Below, one piece after another: positions 1 through 23,343 of a stretch of DNA of 64,000 nt. Every line of letters starts with the position of its first letter. Positions within the stretch are counted from its first letter, which is position 1. The stretch comes from Pohlia nutans. Lineage: Eukaryota > Streptophyta > Bryopsida > Bryales > Mniaceae. The notes beneath the pieces are model-generated. The model was not told where the DNA came from, searched no databases, and worked only from the letters and a program-made list of their open reading frames with translations. The DNA is taken from NCBI GenBank assembly GCA_022496805.1, contig CM040092.1, forward strand, positions 15,890,113 to 15,954,112. The letters are read 5' to 3'. The position numbers and the translations under genes were made by a program.

Positions 1-288
1 CACCGGAATCAGTTCATATGTTGGTAAAAAATAAATTAATTGCAACTAAAGAACCTAGTTAAAGAAATATGACTCGGTCCTATTCAGGTTTCTTGGTTCT
101 CTAGGGGCTAGTGATGCGTGCAATTCGGTAACTAAGTGATTCTCCATTCAATGCCCGAATGACTGCCATTCCAAAGAAATACCTGAATGAACAATCAGGT
201 GCCGATCGATCACCACATGTCGACCTGAAATACGGCGAAAATTAACAACCGAAGTTCCTTCAGGAGTGTTAATAATACCAATAGGAAT

Positions 289-633
289 TTATGCATGTTG
301 ATGTACACTCACCACAATAAGAAAGGTGGTCCACTTGGACACATGTCCCTCATGAACCTCTTCGCCGCAGGCTTCAGTGGAAGGATGGAAGAATGGAGGG
401 TTGTGGAGAAAGAAAAGCCCCAAAAACCCTCGCTCCGGCACGCCTTTCAGATGATGTTCTTCTAGTCGTGACCTCGCCGTCCGTTTCCTGAATCGCGTTG
501 ACGTCAAATCATCACTGGGTTCCAGAGTGTTCACGACCACAGTAGTGCCGGTACCAGTGGCTTCGACATTCACGACCGTGTTGGTAACCTGCGCCATGAC
601 CCGGACTCTGGACACGTACTCCAGATGTACCAA
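289..633 (-). CDS. Exon-like ORF, copy 1 (possible first exon of an unrecognised gene)
   Basis: This is a minus-strand open frame of 114 codons. Its counterpart at 3263-3613 in the second duplication unit is preserved over about 100 codons with only scattered substitutions. I do not recognise the family. The shared part begins MAQVT, then an Arg/Lys-rich stretch (RFRKRTARSR) and a Phe/Pro-rich stretch (FLHNPPFFHPS). Near its 3' end both copies hold a strong splice-donor match, G|GTGAGT on the minus strand (about 310 here), so the frame after that point is probably intron. Any further exons of this copy would lie left of the window. It could also be a decayed fragment. No signal peptide or membrane segment is visible. 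Confidence 0.3.
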   Translation of the reverse strand: MVHLEYVSRVRVMAQVTNTVVNVEATGTGTTVVVNTLEPSDDLTSTRFRKRTARSRLEEHHLKGVPERGFLGLFFLHNPPFFHPSTEACGEEVHEGHVSKWTTFLIVVSVHQHA

Positions 634-689
634 AACTCCAATCGATTCTAGACCTGGATGATCAATATATCACCGACACTGTACGAAGA

Positions 690-2061
690 AGTCAAACCCT
701 AAGATGGCCGGACTCCCTTACTACACTCACCCTGGCTAAGTCTATAATCATAGTAATTATGTCATCGATCCTCAAACCCAAGTGATTGTCCTAACTTTCG
801 ACATCCTGAATGATCTCTTCTACTAACCATTTATGTTGCAAAAGAGATCAAATGAAATGCATCGTTCATTTCGCAAGATGGCGGGTTGAAAGCGAATCGA
901 ACATATGTGGTAAGTCTCCAGTAATAAATACACGTGCGACGGTCGGATAAAAGCAGCAGATCGAAACTAGCTCACCGGTTTCCTCGCTCTTTAATTTGAT
1001 AAGTCTGTATCTACCGTAATCATGTGAGTTGATGTGACATGTCGATCAGAAAGGGATCTTTGACAATTGAATCAGCGTCCTTTGGAGGATTAATGCGAAG
1101 CATCGATAATGAATATTCGATCACATGACATCATGCTTAAATCATTCACCGGGGATCTTTGACAATTTAAATCGATCTACCAGTCCTGACTTATCGGTCC
1201 CAGTGCAAAGTAGAAAATATAGTCAAGGTTACTTCTGCATTACTTATGACCACTTCAATATCGTCGGTAAGAATCTGAGCGCACGTGTTGACTTTGAATT
1301 CATCCGACAACTGGCTCGTTTAAATCTAGTGATATTTCAGTATAATTGATTGGTACGATATTTGTACCGCGCGCCCCCCAAGTTGCAAGAAAAGTTCCGA
1401 GATTCGTCCCTGAAATGCTCGAAGAACCTACACTAATTTTAAAAATATTGCGGAGTTTGAATTTCTTGTGATGAAACCACGGTCCGTAGAAAAGATACTG
1501 TGTGCACATCGTTTGAGTTGAAAAGAGATTCGGACTGACGAATTCTTGAACACCAGTACTGAGTACTACGGTCCAAAACAAGAGTTTCTCATTCACGTAC
1601 AGTACTTGTATTCTGACTTCCTTGTCTGGAGGTAGCTAGGATCTGACTCTTTCTTTCTTTTTCTACCACACAGAGCCTGTCTTGGCCACAAAGTGAAAGT
1701 CTAATCGCTTGAGCACTGATCAAGGTTTCCTGTTTTCATTCGATTTGACATGATATGTTAGGAAGAAATGACCGAGTCCCTTCGATTCAGGAATGAAGGT
1801 GATGCTTGCTCATGTGAGCTCTTCGCTACTGGGACCATACACTGATTGCTACGTTTGTTAGCAGCGTTAGACACAGGGAACCTTGACCGATTCACTGCCA
1901 AGTAAATATTACTGCCAAACTGCAGATTGTAGCAAGTTTTGCAAGTGGTTGTTCAATTTTGCAAGTGTTCACCAAGAATTCACCATCATTCTTGTACCAT
2001 TTACTACCTGGTAAATGTGTCAAGGTGCCCTGTGAGACTACAGTAATTTAGTAGCTTCAAG
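690..2061. other. Noncoding upstream region of LRAT copy 1
   Basis: No convincing coding sequence was found. Most of this stretch is duplicated, with divergence, at 3660-5240. It presumably contains the promoter and 5' leader of the LRAT gene at 2062, but I could not single out a TATA box or transcription start. Confidence 0.5.
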
Positions 2062-2714
2062 ATGCCAAGAAGTCCGGTCGCGGCTGCTTTGGGACTTGTC
2101 CCAAGGAAGATCAAGGACGAGGAGCTTCAGCCGGGGGACCATATCTGCACGGACCGGAACCTGACACTGTACTACCACCACGGAATCTACATGGGCAACG
2201 ACAGAGTGATCCATTTCTCCAAGGTGTCGGAGAGCAATCCCCCCGGTGAGAACGACAAGTGCGATCACTACGAGGACACCACCACCGATGAGCCCTGGGC
2301 AGTTCGTAAGTGCTGCCTCAAGTGCTTCGTGCGCAGGAAACCAGGCTCCTGGCACGTCCATCCTCACTCCCTCTACATCTTCGAGTACGGGAAATGGCTC
2401 ACGCCCTTGTCGATCATCAACACCGGAGGCAGCCACAAGAAAGCCTTACCGGCGGAGGAGGTGTTGAGGAACGCTGCTGAGATGCTGGACAATGAGAAAC
2501 TCAAGTATGAGATGCTGGGAAAGGTGAGAAGGGGAAATATGAGATGCTGGTGAGCGAGAACCGCGAGAAGAAATGCTTCGGGGATTACTCTCTGGGGTTC
2601 AAAAACTGCGAAACGTTTGCATTCTACTGCAAAACCGAGAGTCGGTACTGGTTTGGGAGCAAGCAGGTGCTGCTCGCAGCGGCTTGTGTTGTTCTTCAGA
2701 TTGTAACTAGCTAA
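2062..2714 (+). pseudogene. LRAT-domain (NlpC/P60-like) protein, frameshifted copy
   Basis: The frame from 2062 encodes the first two thirds of a plant LRAT-domain protein. It has GDHIC (His27), the YYHHGIY block (His39-40) and VIHF, then a Cys pair CCLKC and a tyrosine/phenylalanine strand (LYIFEY). LRAT-family proteins use a His and a later Cys in an NCE motif; their substrates in plants are not established. As read, this frame stops at 2551-2553, before that Cys. The missing C-terminus, with FKNCETFAFYCKT and a hydrophobic tail, is intact in another frame (2535-2714). A 32-bp imperfect tandem duplication (units at 2503 and 2535) separates the two frames. The gene is therefore broken, or makes a short product, or contains an assembly error. 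It is the better preserved of two tandem copies. Confidence 0.75.
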
Positions 2715-3091: not shown

Positions 3092-3262
3092 AGTAATGCG
3101 TGCGATTCGGCAGCTGATTCTCCATTCAGATTTCAGAGTGCCATTCCAAAGAAATACCTGAATGAACAATCAGGTGCCGATCGATCACCACTTTTCGACC
3201 TCAATACGGCGAAAATTAACAACCGAAGTTCCTTCAGGAGTGTTAATAATACCAATAGGAAT

Positions 3263-3613
3263 TTATGCATGTTGATGTACACTCACCACAATAAGAAAGA
3301 TGGTCCACTTGGACACATGTCCCGCATGAACCTCTTCGCCGCAGGCTTCAGTGGAAGGATGGAAGAATGGAGGGTTGTGGAGAAAGAAAAGCCCCAAAAA
3401 CCCTCGCTCCGGCACGGCTTTCAGATGAAGTTCTTCTAGTCGTGACCTCGCCGTCCGTTTCCTGAATCGTGTTGCCGTCAAATCATCACTGGGTTCCAGA
3501 CCGTTCACGACAACAGTCGTACCGATACCAGTGGCTTCAACATTCACGACCGTATCGGTAACCTGCGCCATATGTATGTCGGTCGATGAATCTGACCTGG
3601 ACAATATGAACAC
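3263..3613 (-). CDS. Exon-like ORF, copy 2
   Basis: This is the second-unit counterpart of the 289-633 frame, sharing the same MAQVT start (about 3571) and the same G|GTGAGT donor near 3284. Keeping an open frame and a donor in both copies suggests a first exon rather than chance. No continuing exon could be identified between here and 2715, so the gene may be a remnant. Product unknown. Confidence 0.3.
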   Translation of the reverse strand: MFILSRSDSSTDIHMAQVTDTVVNVEATGIGTTVVVNGLEPSDDLTATRFRKRTARSRLEELHLKAVPERGFLGLFFLHNPPFFHPSTEACGEEVHAGHVSKWTIFLIVVSVHQHA

Positions 3614-4089
3614 TTCACATGTATCGAAACCCTAGCCCTGGATGATCGCTGTATGACCGACACATTGGGAATTCAAACCCTTAGATGGCCTGACTACCTT
3701 ACTGCGCTCATCATAGTAAATCGATCCTCAAACCCAAGTGATTGTCCTAACTTTCGACATCCTGAATGATCTCTTCTACTACCCATATATGTTGCAAAAG
3801 AGATCAAATGAAAGGCATCGATGATTTCGTAAGGTGGCGGGATGCAATCAAATCGTACTTATATGGTAAGAATTTCTGTGACAGAAATACACCTGCTCCG
3901 GTCGGAATGAAGCTGTTAATCAAATTGCAAACTAGCTCATCGCCCTTTAATTCGATACCGTAATCATGTGAGTTGCTGTGACATGTCAATCAGCAGGGGA
4001 CCTTTGACGAGGGCAATGGCTTGAATCAGCATTTGGATGAATACGAAGCATCGATAACATGACATTACGCCTAAATCGTTCACCGGGAA

Positions 4090-4242
4090 CACAGGGAGAT
4101 AAATACAAGATTCCCATATGGGAAAAAGGGAGACGATTGTAACTTTCCCAGATCAAAATACACTACAATCATCCCATTCTGGGAATTTTGTCCCACTTCC
4201 CATATGAAATCCCATGTGGGGATGTCTTCATTTCTCCCTGTG
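4090..4242. mobile_element. CACTA-like MITE, 153 bp
   Basis: The ends are CACAGGGAGA and its inverse TCTCCCTGTG. The flanks carry a 3-bp direct repeat GAA (4087-4089 and 4243-4245). The block is absent from the equivalent place in duplication unit 1 (about 1150), which supports an insertion. CAC...GTG termini and a 3-bp target duplication are typical of the CACTA (EnSpm) superfamily. No coding capacity. Confidence 0.7.
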
Positions 4243-5240
4243 GAAGGTAAGATGCTTTGTATAAATGCAGATTTACTCTCACTGTATAGTTAAAGAACTG
4301 AGATCCTTTTCGAGGATCAAGAGTCGATCTTTCAGAACTTATCGGTCCCAGTCCAACTTAGAAAATAAAGTCAAGGTTACTTTTGCATCATATATTCAGA
4401 CCAGTTCAATACTGTAGCATCGTCGGTAAGAAGTAAGAATTTGAGCGTCTTTGACTCTCGATTCCGACAACTGGCTCGTCTTAATAAAGTGGTGTTTTAC
4501 TAACTTCATTGGTACGATATTTGTACCAGGCGTCCCCAAGTTGCAAGAATAGTTCCGAGATTCGTGCCTGGGATGCTCTAAGAACCAATGTAAAAAATAT
4601 TACAGGGTTTAAATTCCTTGTGATGAGAGCATGTGGAAAAGATTCTGTGCATCGTTCGAATTAAAAAAGATATTCAGAAAGACGAATTCTTGAGCACCAG
4701 TACTACGTACGCTCCAAAACTAGGGTTTCTCCTTCTCATTATGTAGATGGAGACTCAGAGGTCATTAAGCAGAGCTGCCTGTCCAGATCATGGTGTGAGT
4801 TCAAGATCGATAGTTACAAACTTACAACAGGTGATGCATGATCAAGTGAACATACTTCTCACTTCATTGTCCAGAGCTAGCTAGGATCTGACTCTTTCAT
4901 TTTTGTGCTACCACACACAGCCTGTCTTTGAGACAAAGTGAAAGACTATTCGCTCACTGATCGAGTTTTCATGTTTTCATTCGATTTGACATGATGTGTT
5001 AACCTGAAGAAATGAGTGCCTTCGATTCAGGTATGATGGGATACTTAGTCATGTGACAGAGTCCTTCACTACGTTTGTTAGCAACCGTTAGTGAAGTAGG
5101 TCTAACAACATTAGGGTATATGTATATTCATTAGGTTTGTCAGGCTCCAGGACGATAGAATTACGAGCTGGAGGTGAATCTCAACACCCCGAGATCGATA
5201 TTATATATTCAACCTCCTACACTAATTAAGTAGCTTCGAG

Positions 5241-5745
5241 ATGCCATACCCACCAATCATGGCACCTTTGGGACTTGTCCCACGGAAGATAAAAAATGAG
5301 AAGCTTAAGTTGGGGACCACATCCACTAGAAGTTTTGGAGGACTTAGCTAGGGCTAACGCTTCAGCCCCCTTTTAACCCCTGTAGCATTGGGTTTCTTAA
5401 CTCGGGAACTTTATTTTATGAAGACATTAGCCCCCAGAAATGGTCCGCTTGCCCCGGCTAAAGTAAATTAGCCCCAATTAAAGTTTGAGGGATTAGCCCC
5501 CATTATTGGGGAATTAGCCCCCCATTGGTCCATTAGCCCCGGGGGCTAACACTCCAAAATCTTCTTGTGATCTGCACGGACCAGACCCTGACAATTTACT
5601 ACCACCATGGAATCTACATGGGCAACGACAAAGTGATCCATTTTTCCAAGGTGTTGGAGAACAAGGCCCCAGGGAGAAGGACAAGTACGATCACCACAAG
5701 AACATCACCACCGACGAACCTTGAGGAGTTCGCTAAAGGCAACAT
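5241..5745 (+). pseudogene. LRAT-domain pseudogene, split by a MITE
   Basis: This is the homologue of the LRAT gene at 2062 in the second unit. The start codon and first 20 or so codons are recognisable, followed by a 1-nt deletion in the run of G before GDH. A 246-bp insertion then follows (5324-5569). Afterwards the HHGIY and VIHFSKV region resumes, with another 1-nt deletion and a premature stop near 5722. The 3' third, with the NCE cysteine, is missing. This copy cannot encode the enzyme. Confidence 0.85.
5324..5569. mobile_element. CACTA-like MITE inside the LRAT pseudogene
   Basis: The termini are CACTAGAAGTTTTGGAG and, inverted, CACAAGAAGATTTTGGAG. The flanking 3-bp target duplication is ATC (5321-5323, 5570-5572). 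Removing the insert and one ATC rejoins the LRAT sequence seen in copy 1. The interior is rich in TTAGCCCC/GGGGCTAA motifs in both orientations, so it can fold. It is non-autonomous. Confidence 0.9.
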
Positions 5746-8031: not shown

Positions 8032-9013
8032 TACAGTGGGGTCCAACATGGAATGGCGTTTTTGGTTTCGCAGTGAGAAAAATTTCAGTACTGCCAACTT
8101 TGAAAGCCTCCCGAGAGCTCAAATATTGGTATTTTACCACGAAAATTTTACCAGAGACTTATCTTTAAGTTAATTATATGTATGCCAAATTTCAAGGCCA
8201 AAAGATTCACCAAAAAAACGTTATTCAAAATCTACCAACATTGGTAGTTATTCACTGCTGCCAACTTTGACAACCTCCCAAAGATTGAATTAATTTTTTT
8301 TTGCCATGAAATTCTTGGAAAAAGAACTTCTTTATGTTAATAACATATGATAAAAATTTCAAGGCCAGAAGATTAATACAAAAAATATATTGACAATCTA
8401 CCAACATGTGTAGTTGTGGGAAACAATGGGGGAAACTTTGCTACCAACTTTGACACCCTCCCTACGGTTGAGAAATTGTCTATTTACCATGAAATTTTTG
8501 GTACAACATGCTATTTATGACAAAATCATTCATGCCAAATTTCAAGGTCAAAAAATCTATACAAAGAAAATTATTTACAATCTACCAATGTGTGTAGTTT
8601 CCCCCATTGTTTCCCACAACTACACATGTTGGTAGATTGTTAATATCGTTTTTTGTATTAATCTTTTGGCCTTGAAATTTTTATCATATGTTATTAACAT
8701 AAAGAAGTTTTTTTTCCTAGAATTTTATGGCAAAAAAAAAATTAATTCAATCTTTGGGAGGCTGTCAAAGTTGGCAGCAGTGAAAACATTTCCACAGCTA
8801 CCAATGTTGGTAGATTCTGAATAACTTTTTTTGGGTGAATCTTTTGGCCTTGAAATTTGGCATACATATAATTAACTTAAAGATAAGTCTCTGGTAGAAT
8901 TTTCGTGGTAAAATACCAATATTTGAGCTCTCGGAAGGCTTTCAAAGTTGGCAGTACTGAAATTTTTCTCACTGCGAAACCAAAAACGCCATTCCATGTT
9001 GGACCCCACTGTA
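8032..9013. mobile_element. Large foldback element, Tc1/mariner-like termini
   Basis: Two arms of nearly 490 bp are inverted copies almost to the centre (about 8600). The termini are CAGTGGGGTCCAACATGG and its inverse, flanked by TA on both sides (8032-8033, 9012-9013). CAGT ends and a TA target duplication fit the Tc1/mariner (pogo-like) group. The small open frames inside are mirror shadows and not genes. A second, interrupted copy lies at 40876-42377. Confidence 0.8.
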
Positions 9014-15902: not shown

Positions 15903-17030
15903 GGGCAATGGTCTGATATGGGTACCTCGAAAAGCCCTTTTAACTCTTAAATCAACTCCTATGGCAACTTTGAAAGATCCTTCTTTTGAAAAAATAAAAA
16001 ATGAATTGATCAAATGTAGCTTTGATTTCCTACATTCATAAAGTACACAAAATATCATGTAAAAATTGAAGAGTTTTATAGATTTTAAAAGAGACTTTTT
16101 GTACAAAAATTAGAATTTGTCCCAACTACTTAAAAACATCCAAAACATTTGTTTAAAATATCCAATGATGTCATTTTAGTACCAATTTTGATATGAAGTA
16201 CATCTAGATGTATGTCATTTGAAATGATTAATTCGAAGGATTAAAAATATTATTTATTTTGTACTACAATGCTTGCAAATGCTGATTTTTGGCAATTTTT
16301 CTTACAAAGCATAAACATATGAAAATTATTTATTCAATTAAGAAGTTGAACTTGGATTAAATTATTCATGTCATCTAGGTGTGCATATTTTTATAATGTA
16401 TTAGTTTGTAATTTTAGTCAATTAAAATGGACAAATTCGTTGAAATTTGGATAAACAAATGTATGTTCGAAATTTCGAAATTTCGACAAATTTTTCCACT
16501 TCAATTAACCAAAATTAATTTTTTTAAATTAAATATATATCCACACTTGGATGACATTAAATAATTTAATTCAAGTATAACTTTTTAATTGAATAAATTA
16601 ATTTTCATGTTTTCATGCTTAGTGAGAAAAATTGCCAAAAATCAACGTGTGCAGGCATTGTAGTACAAAATAAATAATATTTTTAATCCTTCGAATTAAT
16701 CATTTCAAATAACACATATCTAGATGTAGTTTACATCAAAAATTGGTACCAAAATGACGTCATTGGATATTTTAAACAAATGTTTTGGATGTTTTTAAAT
16801 AGTTGGGACAAATTCTAATTTTTGTACAAAAGGTCTCTTTTAAAATCTTTAAAACTCTTCAATTTTTATGTGATATTTTTTTGTGTACTTTATAAATGTA
16901 AGAAATCAAAGCCACATCCGCTTAATTCGTTTTTTATTTTTTGTAAATAGGAAGTCATTCAAAGTTGCCATAGGGGTTGATTTAAGAGATGAAAGGGCTT
17001 TTCAGGGTACCCATATCAGACCATTGCCCA
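15903..17030. mobile_element. Large foldback element
   Basis: It begins GGGCAATGGTCTGATATGGG and ends with the exact inverse. The two arms of about 560 bp stay alignable to the centre near 16470. It encodes no protein; the open frames near each end are mirror images of one another. No convincing target duplication was seen. Confidence 0.75.
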
Positions 17031-21787: not shown

Positions 21788-23343
21788 TTATCTTAAGAAT
21801 TGCGACGACAGGTTTCGCAAACTCAGGTTCGTGTACTTCCCTTGATAAGATGTGATAGGAGAGTCAAAGTCGTTCTCACCAACTGGTCGCACTAAGGCTT
21901 GTGGATGTGCAGGTAAGAGAATGGCCGATTCACTCACCGGATTGTACGATATCAGCTTCCCTGATAAAGTTGACATCAAAACAATAGAAGCACAGATCCC
22001 ACCTGCATTCACAAATGGAACTGCATATGCAATTTCGAAGTCAACGTTCTCCTCACCAAACATTTGCCGGAGGTGCGTCTTTGGAATTTGCACCACCATC
22101 CTGCTTGAATTCTCGGCAACCAAAATTTCTCTCACCTGAAATGACAAGTGGAACTTCCTTTCATTGCCACTGTTCCAAGACTCACCCAGCCACAACATTA
22201 GAAACAAGCGATTGCAGCTGACCACCAGTTGAGGCTGGTGCTTCTTCCTGGGTATCTTCACCTTCACTTTGTCCCACGCATCCTCCTGAACATTGTATTT
22301 CAATAGAGCATACTTTGTTCCAAGGTACACTATTACGTACAAAGTTTCACAAAAAACCACAGCTGACAGGGCAGCTCCTTCGAAGGCCCCTGGTGGCAAT
22401 TTCAATATGCTCCATTGAGTATGGTTAGGTTGTTCATTGTCGGATGATTCGTACAGATATATGCACGTCACATACTCCTCGGAGCTGGTGATAAGAAATA
22501 TCTTGAAGCTGCGAGTGCTCGCATCTGCGCTGGTCACTATTATGGGAAGCGGTTCCTCAGGGTTATAAGATATAGGTAGCAATAGATCCTTTCTGGTCCC
22601 GGTAATTGAATCAGAGATGGCTAAATCGAGCTCTCCAGCAGTTGAAATCATCGCACAGACAAGGCCTTCCTCCATCGTCAACAACTGAACTGTTCTCTCA
22701 TCAGCAGAAGGCTCGCCACACCTGAGCAGTGATTTTTTTGTCAGGAGACAGTTTAGCATTTTTGCTACTTTTCCATGGCTTGAAGAGCAATCCAGGCTCC
22801 TTGGATGCTCTTTTGATGTTAATATATAGGTAATATCAGGGTAATACACATGTGCTACTTAGGCAACACCTGGGTGATACCTAAGTTTAAAGAGGCTACA
22901 CATCTTGACTTACACATGTAAGGAAAGCTGGCTATTATTCCTTTCTTCTTTTTTCAAAAATCCTTTGTATCAATTAGCCAGCCCAAATTTTATGTAGCAA
23001 TTTGGCTAAAATCACAAATTTGGCAATTAGCAACAAAAAAGTCACTGCACCTGAGAATGTACCACCGCCTCGCATCCAGGTCGAGTAAGCTCGTTGAATT
23101 CTCGATTCCAAAGTCAATCTCACAGAACTCCCCATAATCCAGATTGCGGGTGACAAGCAGATACGCATTCTGTTTCTTGTTCTGTTCACAGAGCTCGTGG
23201 AAGCTTGGCTTGCAAAGCAGCTCGTTCCATCCCTTGCAAACGGATCGAAGTCTGCACAATTCGGGCGCCGGCATGAATGACAGCACGCGCTCTATGAGCT
23301 CAAACGGGAGCCTGCTCCATAAACCCGGATTCATATCCATCAC
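21788..23343 (-). CDS. F-box protein with C-terminal beta-propeller-like region
   Basis: Two coding exons (23343-23051 and 22721-21788) give 408 residues. The F-box lies at about residues 7-48 (LWSRLPFELIERVLSFMP, then CRLRSVCKGWNELL). It is expected to bind SKP1 in an SCF ubiquitin ligase, with the rest recruiting a substrate. The remainder is rich in short beta strands and resembles plant F-box/kelch-type proteins without clear kelch signatures. The exon join AG|G keeps frame and reads ...RRWYILRCGEPSADERT. The ATG at 23343 was chosen because it precedes the F-box closely and follows a CAG acceptor of a likely 5' UTR intron. The 329-bp CDS intron has transposon-like ends (see findings). The substrate is unknown. 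Confidence 0.8.
22719..23055. mobile_element. Introner-like element forming the F-box gene intron
   Basis: On the plus strand CACCTGAG (22719-22726 and 23048-23055) flanks a 321-bp unit. Its ends are CAGTGATTTTTTTG and CAAAAAAGTCACTG, inverted repeats matching at 13 of 14 positions. An 8-bp duplication and CAGTG ends fit the hAT superfamily. Read in the gene's direction, the duplication is CTCAGGTG: one copy gives the donor CTCAG|GTG and the other the acceptor CTCAG|GTG. Splicing leaves exactly one copy. Confidence 0.8.

What the first reader, a model, noticed from the sequence alone, without database searches (positions are those of the whole stretch)
22719..23055. A CDS intron that is a transposon-like unit with its target duplication used as both splice sites
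Seen directly: the F-box gene intron is bounded by an exact 8-bp repeat (CTCAGGTG in gene orientation). Just inside are 14-bp inverted repeats CAGTGACTTTTTTG / CAGTGATTTTTTTG. The donor cut falls within the first repeat (CTCAG|GTG) and the acceptor cut within the second, so the spliced RNA has one CTCAGGTG and keeps frame. Known: introners and some DNA transposons create introns in this way when the target contains AGGT, and 8-bp duplications with CAGTG ends suggest hAT. Inference: this is a recent de novo intron gain. Such cases are rarely reported in land plants.
Basis: partly seen in the sequence, partly recalled or inferred. Interest (0 to 1): 0.92.

Follow-up and report, generated by a model that had tools for sequence, protein, structure and literature searches.

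The report
Moss transposon family that becomes introns
In this moss genome a short cut-and-paste transposon inserts into protein-coding genes and, because the few bases it duplicates on landing contain splice signals, it appears to be cut out of the RNA like a normal intron, so one mobile element seems to have given many genes new introns.

Summary
Frame restoration alone proves nothing, so splicing was tested indirectly. The unit belongs to a hAT-type MITE family (3,294 first-look candidates in a 698-Mb genome). Copies with AGGT in the duplication repeatedly sit in exons of conserved genes (ATG18, IPMS, LDH, PP2C, OPT): 24 of 33 examined restore open frames of at least 50 codons on both sides, against 1 of 17 copies without AGGT. 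Of 21 spliced products, 15 have a Pfam domain across the junction. In nine duplicated gene pairs sharing an insertion, the downstream exon shows 30 nonsynonymous against 76 synonymous changes. Unbroken F-box, LDH and OPT paralogues show empty sites. This looks like an Introner family in a land plant, a group in which a survey reported none. The terminal repeat CAGTGA completes the donor (AG|GTCAGTG). "Recent" needs qualifying: the F-box insertion predates a duplication that looks genome-wide. No RNA evidence was available, and target preference explains part of the AGGT excess.

The parts
23051..23340 (-). Exon 1 of the F-box gene (ATG at 23340; 290 nt, ends ...ATTCTCAG)
   Evidence: translation; Pfam F-box PF00646 E 2.6e-12 at residues 8-49
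22722..23050 (-). Proposed 329-nt intron, GTGCAG...CTGCTCAG
   Evidence: Sequence; splicing inferred, not seen in RNA
23048..23055 (-). Target duplication copy 1, CTCAG|GTG: supplies exon-end CAG and donor GT
22719..22726 (-). Target duplication copy 2, CTCAG|GTG: supplies acceptor AG
22727..23047 (-). hAT-type MITE copy, 321 bp, 5.3% from the consensus of 33 copies
23033..23047 (-). Inverted end at the donor side, CAGTGACTTTTTTGT; its first bases complete the donor (GTG+CAGT)
22727..22741 (+). Inverted end at the acceptor side, CAGTGATTTTTTTGT
22740..22744 (-). CTGAC in the family's CTCCTGAC motif; candidate branch point, its A 19 nt upstream of the last base of the intron
   Evidence: Sequence; the plant branch-point consensus CURAY is recalled, function inferred
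21788..22721 (-). Exon 2 of the F-box gene with stop; 12 nonsynonymous and 16 synonymous changes in 310 codons against the C7 duplicate

Best explanation
A hAT-type MITE inserted into an exon of a moss F-box gene and became a spliceosomal intron. Its 8-bp duplication contains AGGT: the left copy gives the exon-end AG and the donor GT, the right copy gives the acceptor AG. The element supplies the rest: its terminal repeat begins CAGTGA, so a duplication ending in AGGT makes AG|GTCAGTG (the F-box case is one base off, AG|GTGCAGT), and its CTCCTGAC motif offers a branch point about 20 nt before the acceptor. It is A+T-rich, as plant introns are (36% GC against 51% and 46% in the exons; the plant rule is recalled). 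The same family has done this in many genes, in both orientations but more often in one, so it behaves as an Introner family. Shown: structure, family, exonic placement at splice-compatible duplications, selection on downstream exons, empty paralogues. Inferred: splicing itself, the branch point, and mobilisation by a hAT transposase.
For: Family with 8-bp duplications and CAGTGA ends. 556 right ends carry the family motif; AGGT follows within 8 bp in 60 (background 2.0% of flank 8-mers, binomial p 8e-26). The base before AGGT is C in 53 of 60 (own count on the list; exon background 30 of 80, p 4e-16). Of 40 of those 60 loci held, 33 have a left end and 24 restore ORFs of at least 50 codons on both sides, against 1 of 17 non-AGGT copies (Fisher p 1e-5). 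Pfam domains cross the junction in 15 of 21 spliced products tested, one marginally. Nine duplicate pairs sharing the insert: 30 nonsynonymous and 76 synonymous changes downstream (p 3e-26), while their introns differ by 3-8 indels each. Donor offsets among 27 sites: 16 adjacent, 8 one base off, 3 three off, none at 2 or 4. Empty sites: LDH and OPT paralogues match unbroken through the junction; the five next-best F-box relatives are unbroken from residue 9 or earlier to 404 or later.
Against: No RNA was seen. The best full-length-type hit to one spliced product (IPMS) was 94%, so transcripts of this species are probably not in that database. The F-box donor GTGCAG is weaker than GTCAGT. A letter-permuted control tetramer (TGGA) also follows the right end in 28 of 556, more than its flank background of 2.6-2.8% (4.0% in exons), so target preference explains part of the duplication bias. 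Seven of 27 and 7 of 40 sites lacked a clear second end by the script's rule (one, L073, was found later). Some restored frames (L074, L106) look like chance frames. The neutral expectation (0.77 nonsynonymous) was taken from one exon and not corrected for transition bias. Some pairs are not independent: duplicates of one gene count twice among the loci.
Confidence: 0.9

Rival explanations
1. The insert is not spliced: it is a MITE that broke the F-box gene, and AGGT in the duplication is chance.
For: Frame restoration is automatic for such inserts; a flank 8-mer contains AGGT about 2% of the time; the F-box donor is weak.
Against: Both gene copies keep 310 intact codons after the insert with dN/dS 0.21 (12 nonsynonymous, 16 synonymous, p 8e-5). 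Dozens of other copies show the same arrangement in coding genes.
Confidence: 0.05
2. The transposase simply prefers targets containing CAGGT, and splicing is partial or incidental.
For: Permuted control TGGA is also somewhat enriched next to the element (28 of 556); hAT elements have target preferences (recalled).
Against: Preference alone does not put AGGT copies in coding exons in reading orientation: 24 of 33 against 1 of 17. Nor does it explain purifying selection downstream. The one coding copy among the 17 has CAGGCAAG in gene orientation, which fits a GC-AG intron.
Confidence: 0.05
3. The MITE landed inside an older intron rather than creating one.
For: Two copies do sit at apparent existing splice sites (L039 duplication GGTTGCAG, L044 CAGGTAT).
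Against: For the F-box gene the splice sites lie in the duplication itself, and the five next-best relatives in the genome are unbroken there. LDH and OPT paralogues are unbroken.
Confidence: 0.02

Closest known systems
Introners / introner elements (DNA-transposon type)
   Same: Repeated element that forms introns at many unrelated positions, in some families with target duplications used as splice sites (PMC9860276, passages and section 6 seen).
   Different: That survey found Introners in only two groups among animals and land plants, both animals. Here the host is a moss, and 17 of 21 copies with a clear duplication are not in a coding exon by the ORF test.
Maize Ds in shrunken2 (Giroux 1994)
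   Same: hAT element in a plant exon, removed with one 8-bp duplication copy (content recalled; the citation is listed in PMC3443670; paper not held).
   Different: A single mutant allele with partial splicing (recalled), not a family with many established introns.
Transposon-into-AGGT model of intron gain
   Same: AGGT duplicated on both sides supplies both splice sites (PMC3443670, passages seen).
   Different: The passages mention that a transposon may carry its own splice sites but give no such terminal repeat. Here the repeat extends the donor to GTCAGTG and an internal motif offers a branch point.
hAT-type MITEs of plants
   Same: About 300 bp, inverted ends CAGTG..., 8-bp duplications.
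   Different: In the unselected set the coding copies (4 of 21) all have splice-compatible duplications: three AGGT, one CAGGCAAG.

Membership tests
Introner | Similar element forming introns at several non-homologous positions | tested here: met
   24 of 33 AGGT copies restore ORFs, in many unrelated genes; 15 of 21 products with a domain across the junction; splicing itself inferred
Introner | Intron-lacking relatives at the same position | tested here: met
   Unbroken F-box, LDH and OPT paralogues; not tested for the other genes
Introner | Splicing confirmed in RNA | not testable with these tools
   No transcripts of this species found; best IPMS hit 94%
Introner | Enriched in genes relative to chance | tested here: inconclusive
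   4 of 21 copies with a clear duplication are coding; no gene annotation to set an expectation
hAT superfamily | 8-bp target duplications | tested here: met
   21 of 39 copies match at 7 or 8 of 8 under strict end criteria, 3 at 6 of 8, 15 gave no call
hAT superfamily | Terminal repeats of the YARNG type | tested here: met
   CAGTG ends; the end-call script favoured CAGTGA, and the YARNG consensus is recalled
hAT superfamily | Mobilised by a hAT transposase with the same ends | not tested
MITE | Short, non-autonomous, high copy number | tested here: met
   Consensus 304 nt, too short for a transposase; 3,294 first-look candidates, 40 scored

The most novel reading that the evidence does not exclude
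This is an Introner family in a land plant: a hAT MITE whose terminal repeat completes a donor site when it lands next to AGGT. It has created a large set of spliceosomal introns, possibly several hundred, mostly before a genome duplication in this moss, in housekeeping genes as well as expanded families.
Probability: 0.8. Interest if true: 0.92.

Novelty: new variant of a known kind. Interest (0 to 1): 0.88.

Why it matters
Where new introns come from is an old question, and land plants were reported to lack Introners in a survey of 3,325 genomes (PMC9860276, passages). A moss family with recognisable ends, duplications, empty paralogues and duplicated-gene pairs lets intron birth be dated, counted and tested in a group where gene replacement is routine (recalled). 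It also suggests why some transposons make introns: the terminal sequence already resembles the inner half of a donor site.

Tried and rejected
Searching the window for more copies found none. Searching GTDB prokaryote contigs and IMG/VR for a 22-base family motif gave 0 and 0. A transcript-based test through the protein database failed because no near-identical protein was listed there (best 120 of 1,108 hits shown). The control tetramer TGGA was counted, but its loci could not be fetched. GT at the donor in 32 of 33 loci is not used as evidence, since left ends were chosen by duplication match. A count of all exact terminal repeats was asked twice and never answered. The relative-rate comparison with P0001 showed no exon-2-specific acceleration (6 against 2 derived residues in exon 1, 30 against 17 in exon 2) and is only weak support. 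Tandem duplication of an AGGT segment was rejected because the inserts share sequence and inverted ends.

Dropped rows: 3 of 24 strict calls with duplications of 6 of 8 were left out, as were 15 of 39 copies with no end call (L017, a PFP gene copy whose duplication contains AGGT, among them). L033, with unclear ends and an unclear ORF, is not counted among the loci. Only 40 of the 60 sites were held. P0016, P0020 and P0021 of the 21 hits were left out of the alignment.

Full report
WHAT IS THERE. On the minus strand an F-box gene runs from ATG 23340 to the stop at 21788 (Pfam F-box E 2.6e-12). Codon 97 is interrupted by a 321-bp unit, 22727-23047, between two identical CTCAGGTG octamers, with 15-bp inverted ends matching 14 of 15. 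No other copy lies in the window. Splicing at CTCAG|GTG removes 329 bp and gives 407 aa; retention gives a stop after 116 aa. The best database relative is 71% identical, and the only hits with an organism name are from the moss Ceratodon purpureus, so the genome is taken to be a moss.

WHY FRAME IS NOT ENOUGH. Cutting out an insert with one duplication copy restores the frame of any insertion. Whether such inserts are removed from RNA must come from other evidence.

THE FAMILY. The window lies in G000, 698 Mb, contig C8. The unit has 3,294 first-look candidates, of which 40 were scored. I fetched 39. Under strict end criteria 24 of 39 have ends, 21 of these a duplication of 7 or 8 of 8; 15 gave no call. 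Ends begin CAGTGA in most called copies. The consensus of 33 copies is 304 nt; copies differ from it by 2-13%, the window copy by 5.3%. This is a hAT-type MITE. hAT dimerisation domains are common in the genome but were not linked to these ends.

SPLICE-COMPATIBLE TARGETS AND CODING EXONS. Of the 21 copies, 4 carry AGGT (three in element orientation, one antisense) and 3 of those 4 lie in coding exons. Of the 17 without AGGT, 1 does, and its duplication reads CAGGCAAG in gene orientation, as a GC-AG intron would need. This set was ranked by similarity to a query that included the duplication, a slight bias. Pattern searches avoid it. AGGT within 4 bp of an exact terminal repeat occurs 27 times. 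Of the 20 with both ends called, 17 restore sense ORFs of at least 50 codons on each side; a later look added L073, making 18 of 21. On the acceptor side the motif CTCCTGACN{4,14}ATCACTG occurs 556 times, with AGGT following in 60, ACCT in 26 and the permuted control TGGA in 28. Flank backgrounds are 2.0% for AGGT and ACCT and 2.6-2.8% for TGGA (exons 1.9, 1.8 and 4.0%). So AGGT is about five times expectation, ACCT (antisense AGGT) about two and a half times, and TGGA 1.3 to 1.9 times: target preference accounts for part of the excess. Of the 60 loci, 40 were held, 33 of these had both ends and 24 restored ORFs. By position, together give 44 loci with restored ORFs (own tally, duplicates of one gene counted apart; a few frames may be chance).

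THE GENES. Spliced products include ATG18 (PROPPIN), ODR4-like, PFP, FBPase, PPR, an MFS protein read as NRT2 (reading recalled), PHO4, MutS read as MSH1 (recalled), TPM, LRR, FAM32A, LDH, PP2C, mTERF, GCIP, OPT, Phi_1 and 2-isopropylmalate synthase, where the junction PVICGLSR|CNK lies in a stretch invariant in the eight sequences aligned. Of 21 products scanned, a domain crosses the junction in 15 (FBPase by about two residues), the listed domain lies only beside it in 4 (MutS, LRR, WDR75, pectinesterase), and none is found in 2 (L050, L058).

SELECTION. The F-box gene has a duplicate on C7 with the same insertion at the same base. Exon 2 differs by 12 nonsynonymous and 16 synonymous changes, dN 0.017, dS 0.080, without indels, while the insert differs by several indels, one of them a large insertion. 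Nine such pairs pooled give 30 nonsynonymous and 76 synonymous changes downstream. Downstream exons are therefore still translated, which is most simply explained by removal of the insert. In a further test 8 of 8 introner junctions queried had duplicates split in the same place, so these insertions predate duplication of paired chromosomes (C1/C2, C5/C6, C9/C10, C11/C12, C19/C20, C19/C21; one search adds C3/C4 and C7/C8).

EMPTY SITES. In one search LDH paralogues on C2 and C1 (86 and 85%) and OPT paralogues on C3 and C4 (80 and 79%) match without a break through the junction. In one search the window gene and its C7 duplicate are split at residue 97; the next five relatives (41-42%) run unbroken from residue 9 or earlier to 404 or later. 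Two weaker relatives on C11 and C12 stop at residue 94 and resume at 194 with over a kilobase of extra sequence between; their structure was not resolved. Some other weak matches stop near residues 95-100 and resume after about the expected distance (for example C3:22686139, C4:24265009). Proteins of other mosses run through the site, which does not show their gene structure.

HOW IT WORKS. The repeat starts CAGTGA. A duplication ending in AGGT gives CAG|GTCAGTG, five of six positions of GTAAGT (consensus recalled). Of 33 acceptor-set loci, 20 have donor GTCAGT and 4 GTGCAG, the F-box type. Among 27 sites offsets are 16 at zero, 8 at one, 3 at three (those three have GTGAG or GTGAA within the duplication) and none at two or four. 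CTGAC sits 19 nt before the last intron base in the F-box copy. Antisense copies also serve, for example IPMS.

STANDING IN THE LITERATURE. PMC9860276 (passages and section 6) reports Introners in no land plant. PMC3443670 (passages) states the AGGT model and lists Zea and Oryza among transposon cases. PMC12550479 (passages) surveys MITEs in 207 plant genomes; the passages seen do not report intron creation. The listings showed no title or abstract start on an Introner family in a moss; the library lacks most subscription papers and all bioRxiv preprints.

ESTIMATE. If the 60 of 556 share held for all 3,294 candidates, some 350 sense introners would exist; this is extrapolation from copies with an intact motif.

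Noticed in passing
window 8094-8951: 858-bp unit with a 12/12 inverted end (CCAACTTTGAAA) between palindromic CAGTACTG octamers.
   Followed up: no
window 16107-16821: 715-bp unit with 12/12 inverted ends AAATTAGAATTT between TTGTACAA octamers.
   Followed up: no
window 110-2306 and 3092-5732: Collinear duplicated blocks, 75-85% identical; an LRAT-like ORF (name recalled) lies at 2062-2553.
   Followed up: no
G000 contig pairs C1/C2, C3/C4, C5/C6, C7/C8, C9/C10, C11/C12: Homologous genes on paired contigs (91-99% identity in the eight genes): the genome looks recently duplicated or allopolyploid.
   Followed up: partly
L049 about 1506-1752 (C1:10881441): Insert with the same kind of ends and the same CTCAGGTG duplication as the F-box copy but no BLAST match inside: a second family sharing termini may also form introns.
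   Followed up: no
L039 and L044: Family copies whose duplication looks like an existing acceptor (GGTTGCAG) or donor (CAGGTAT), so the element may also duplicate old splice sites.
   Followed up: no
nine duplicate pairs: In all nine pairs one of the two shared introns is longer by 204-548 bp; in the one aligned in full (L062) the difference is mainly one large insertion.
   Followed up: no
G000 C11:2175505-2177957 and C12:1603740-1606703: Two F-box relatives stop matching at residue 94 and resume at 194 with over 1 kb extra between, near the position of the studied intron.
   Followed up: no
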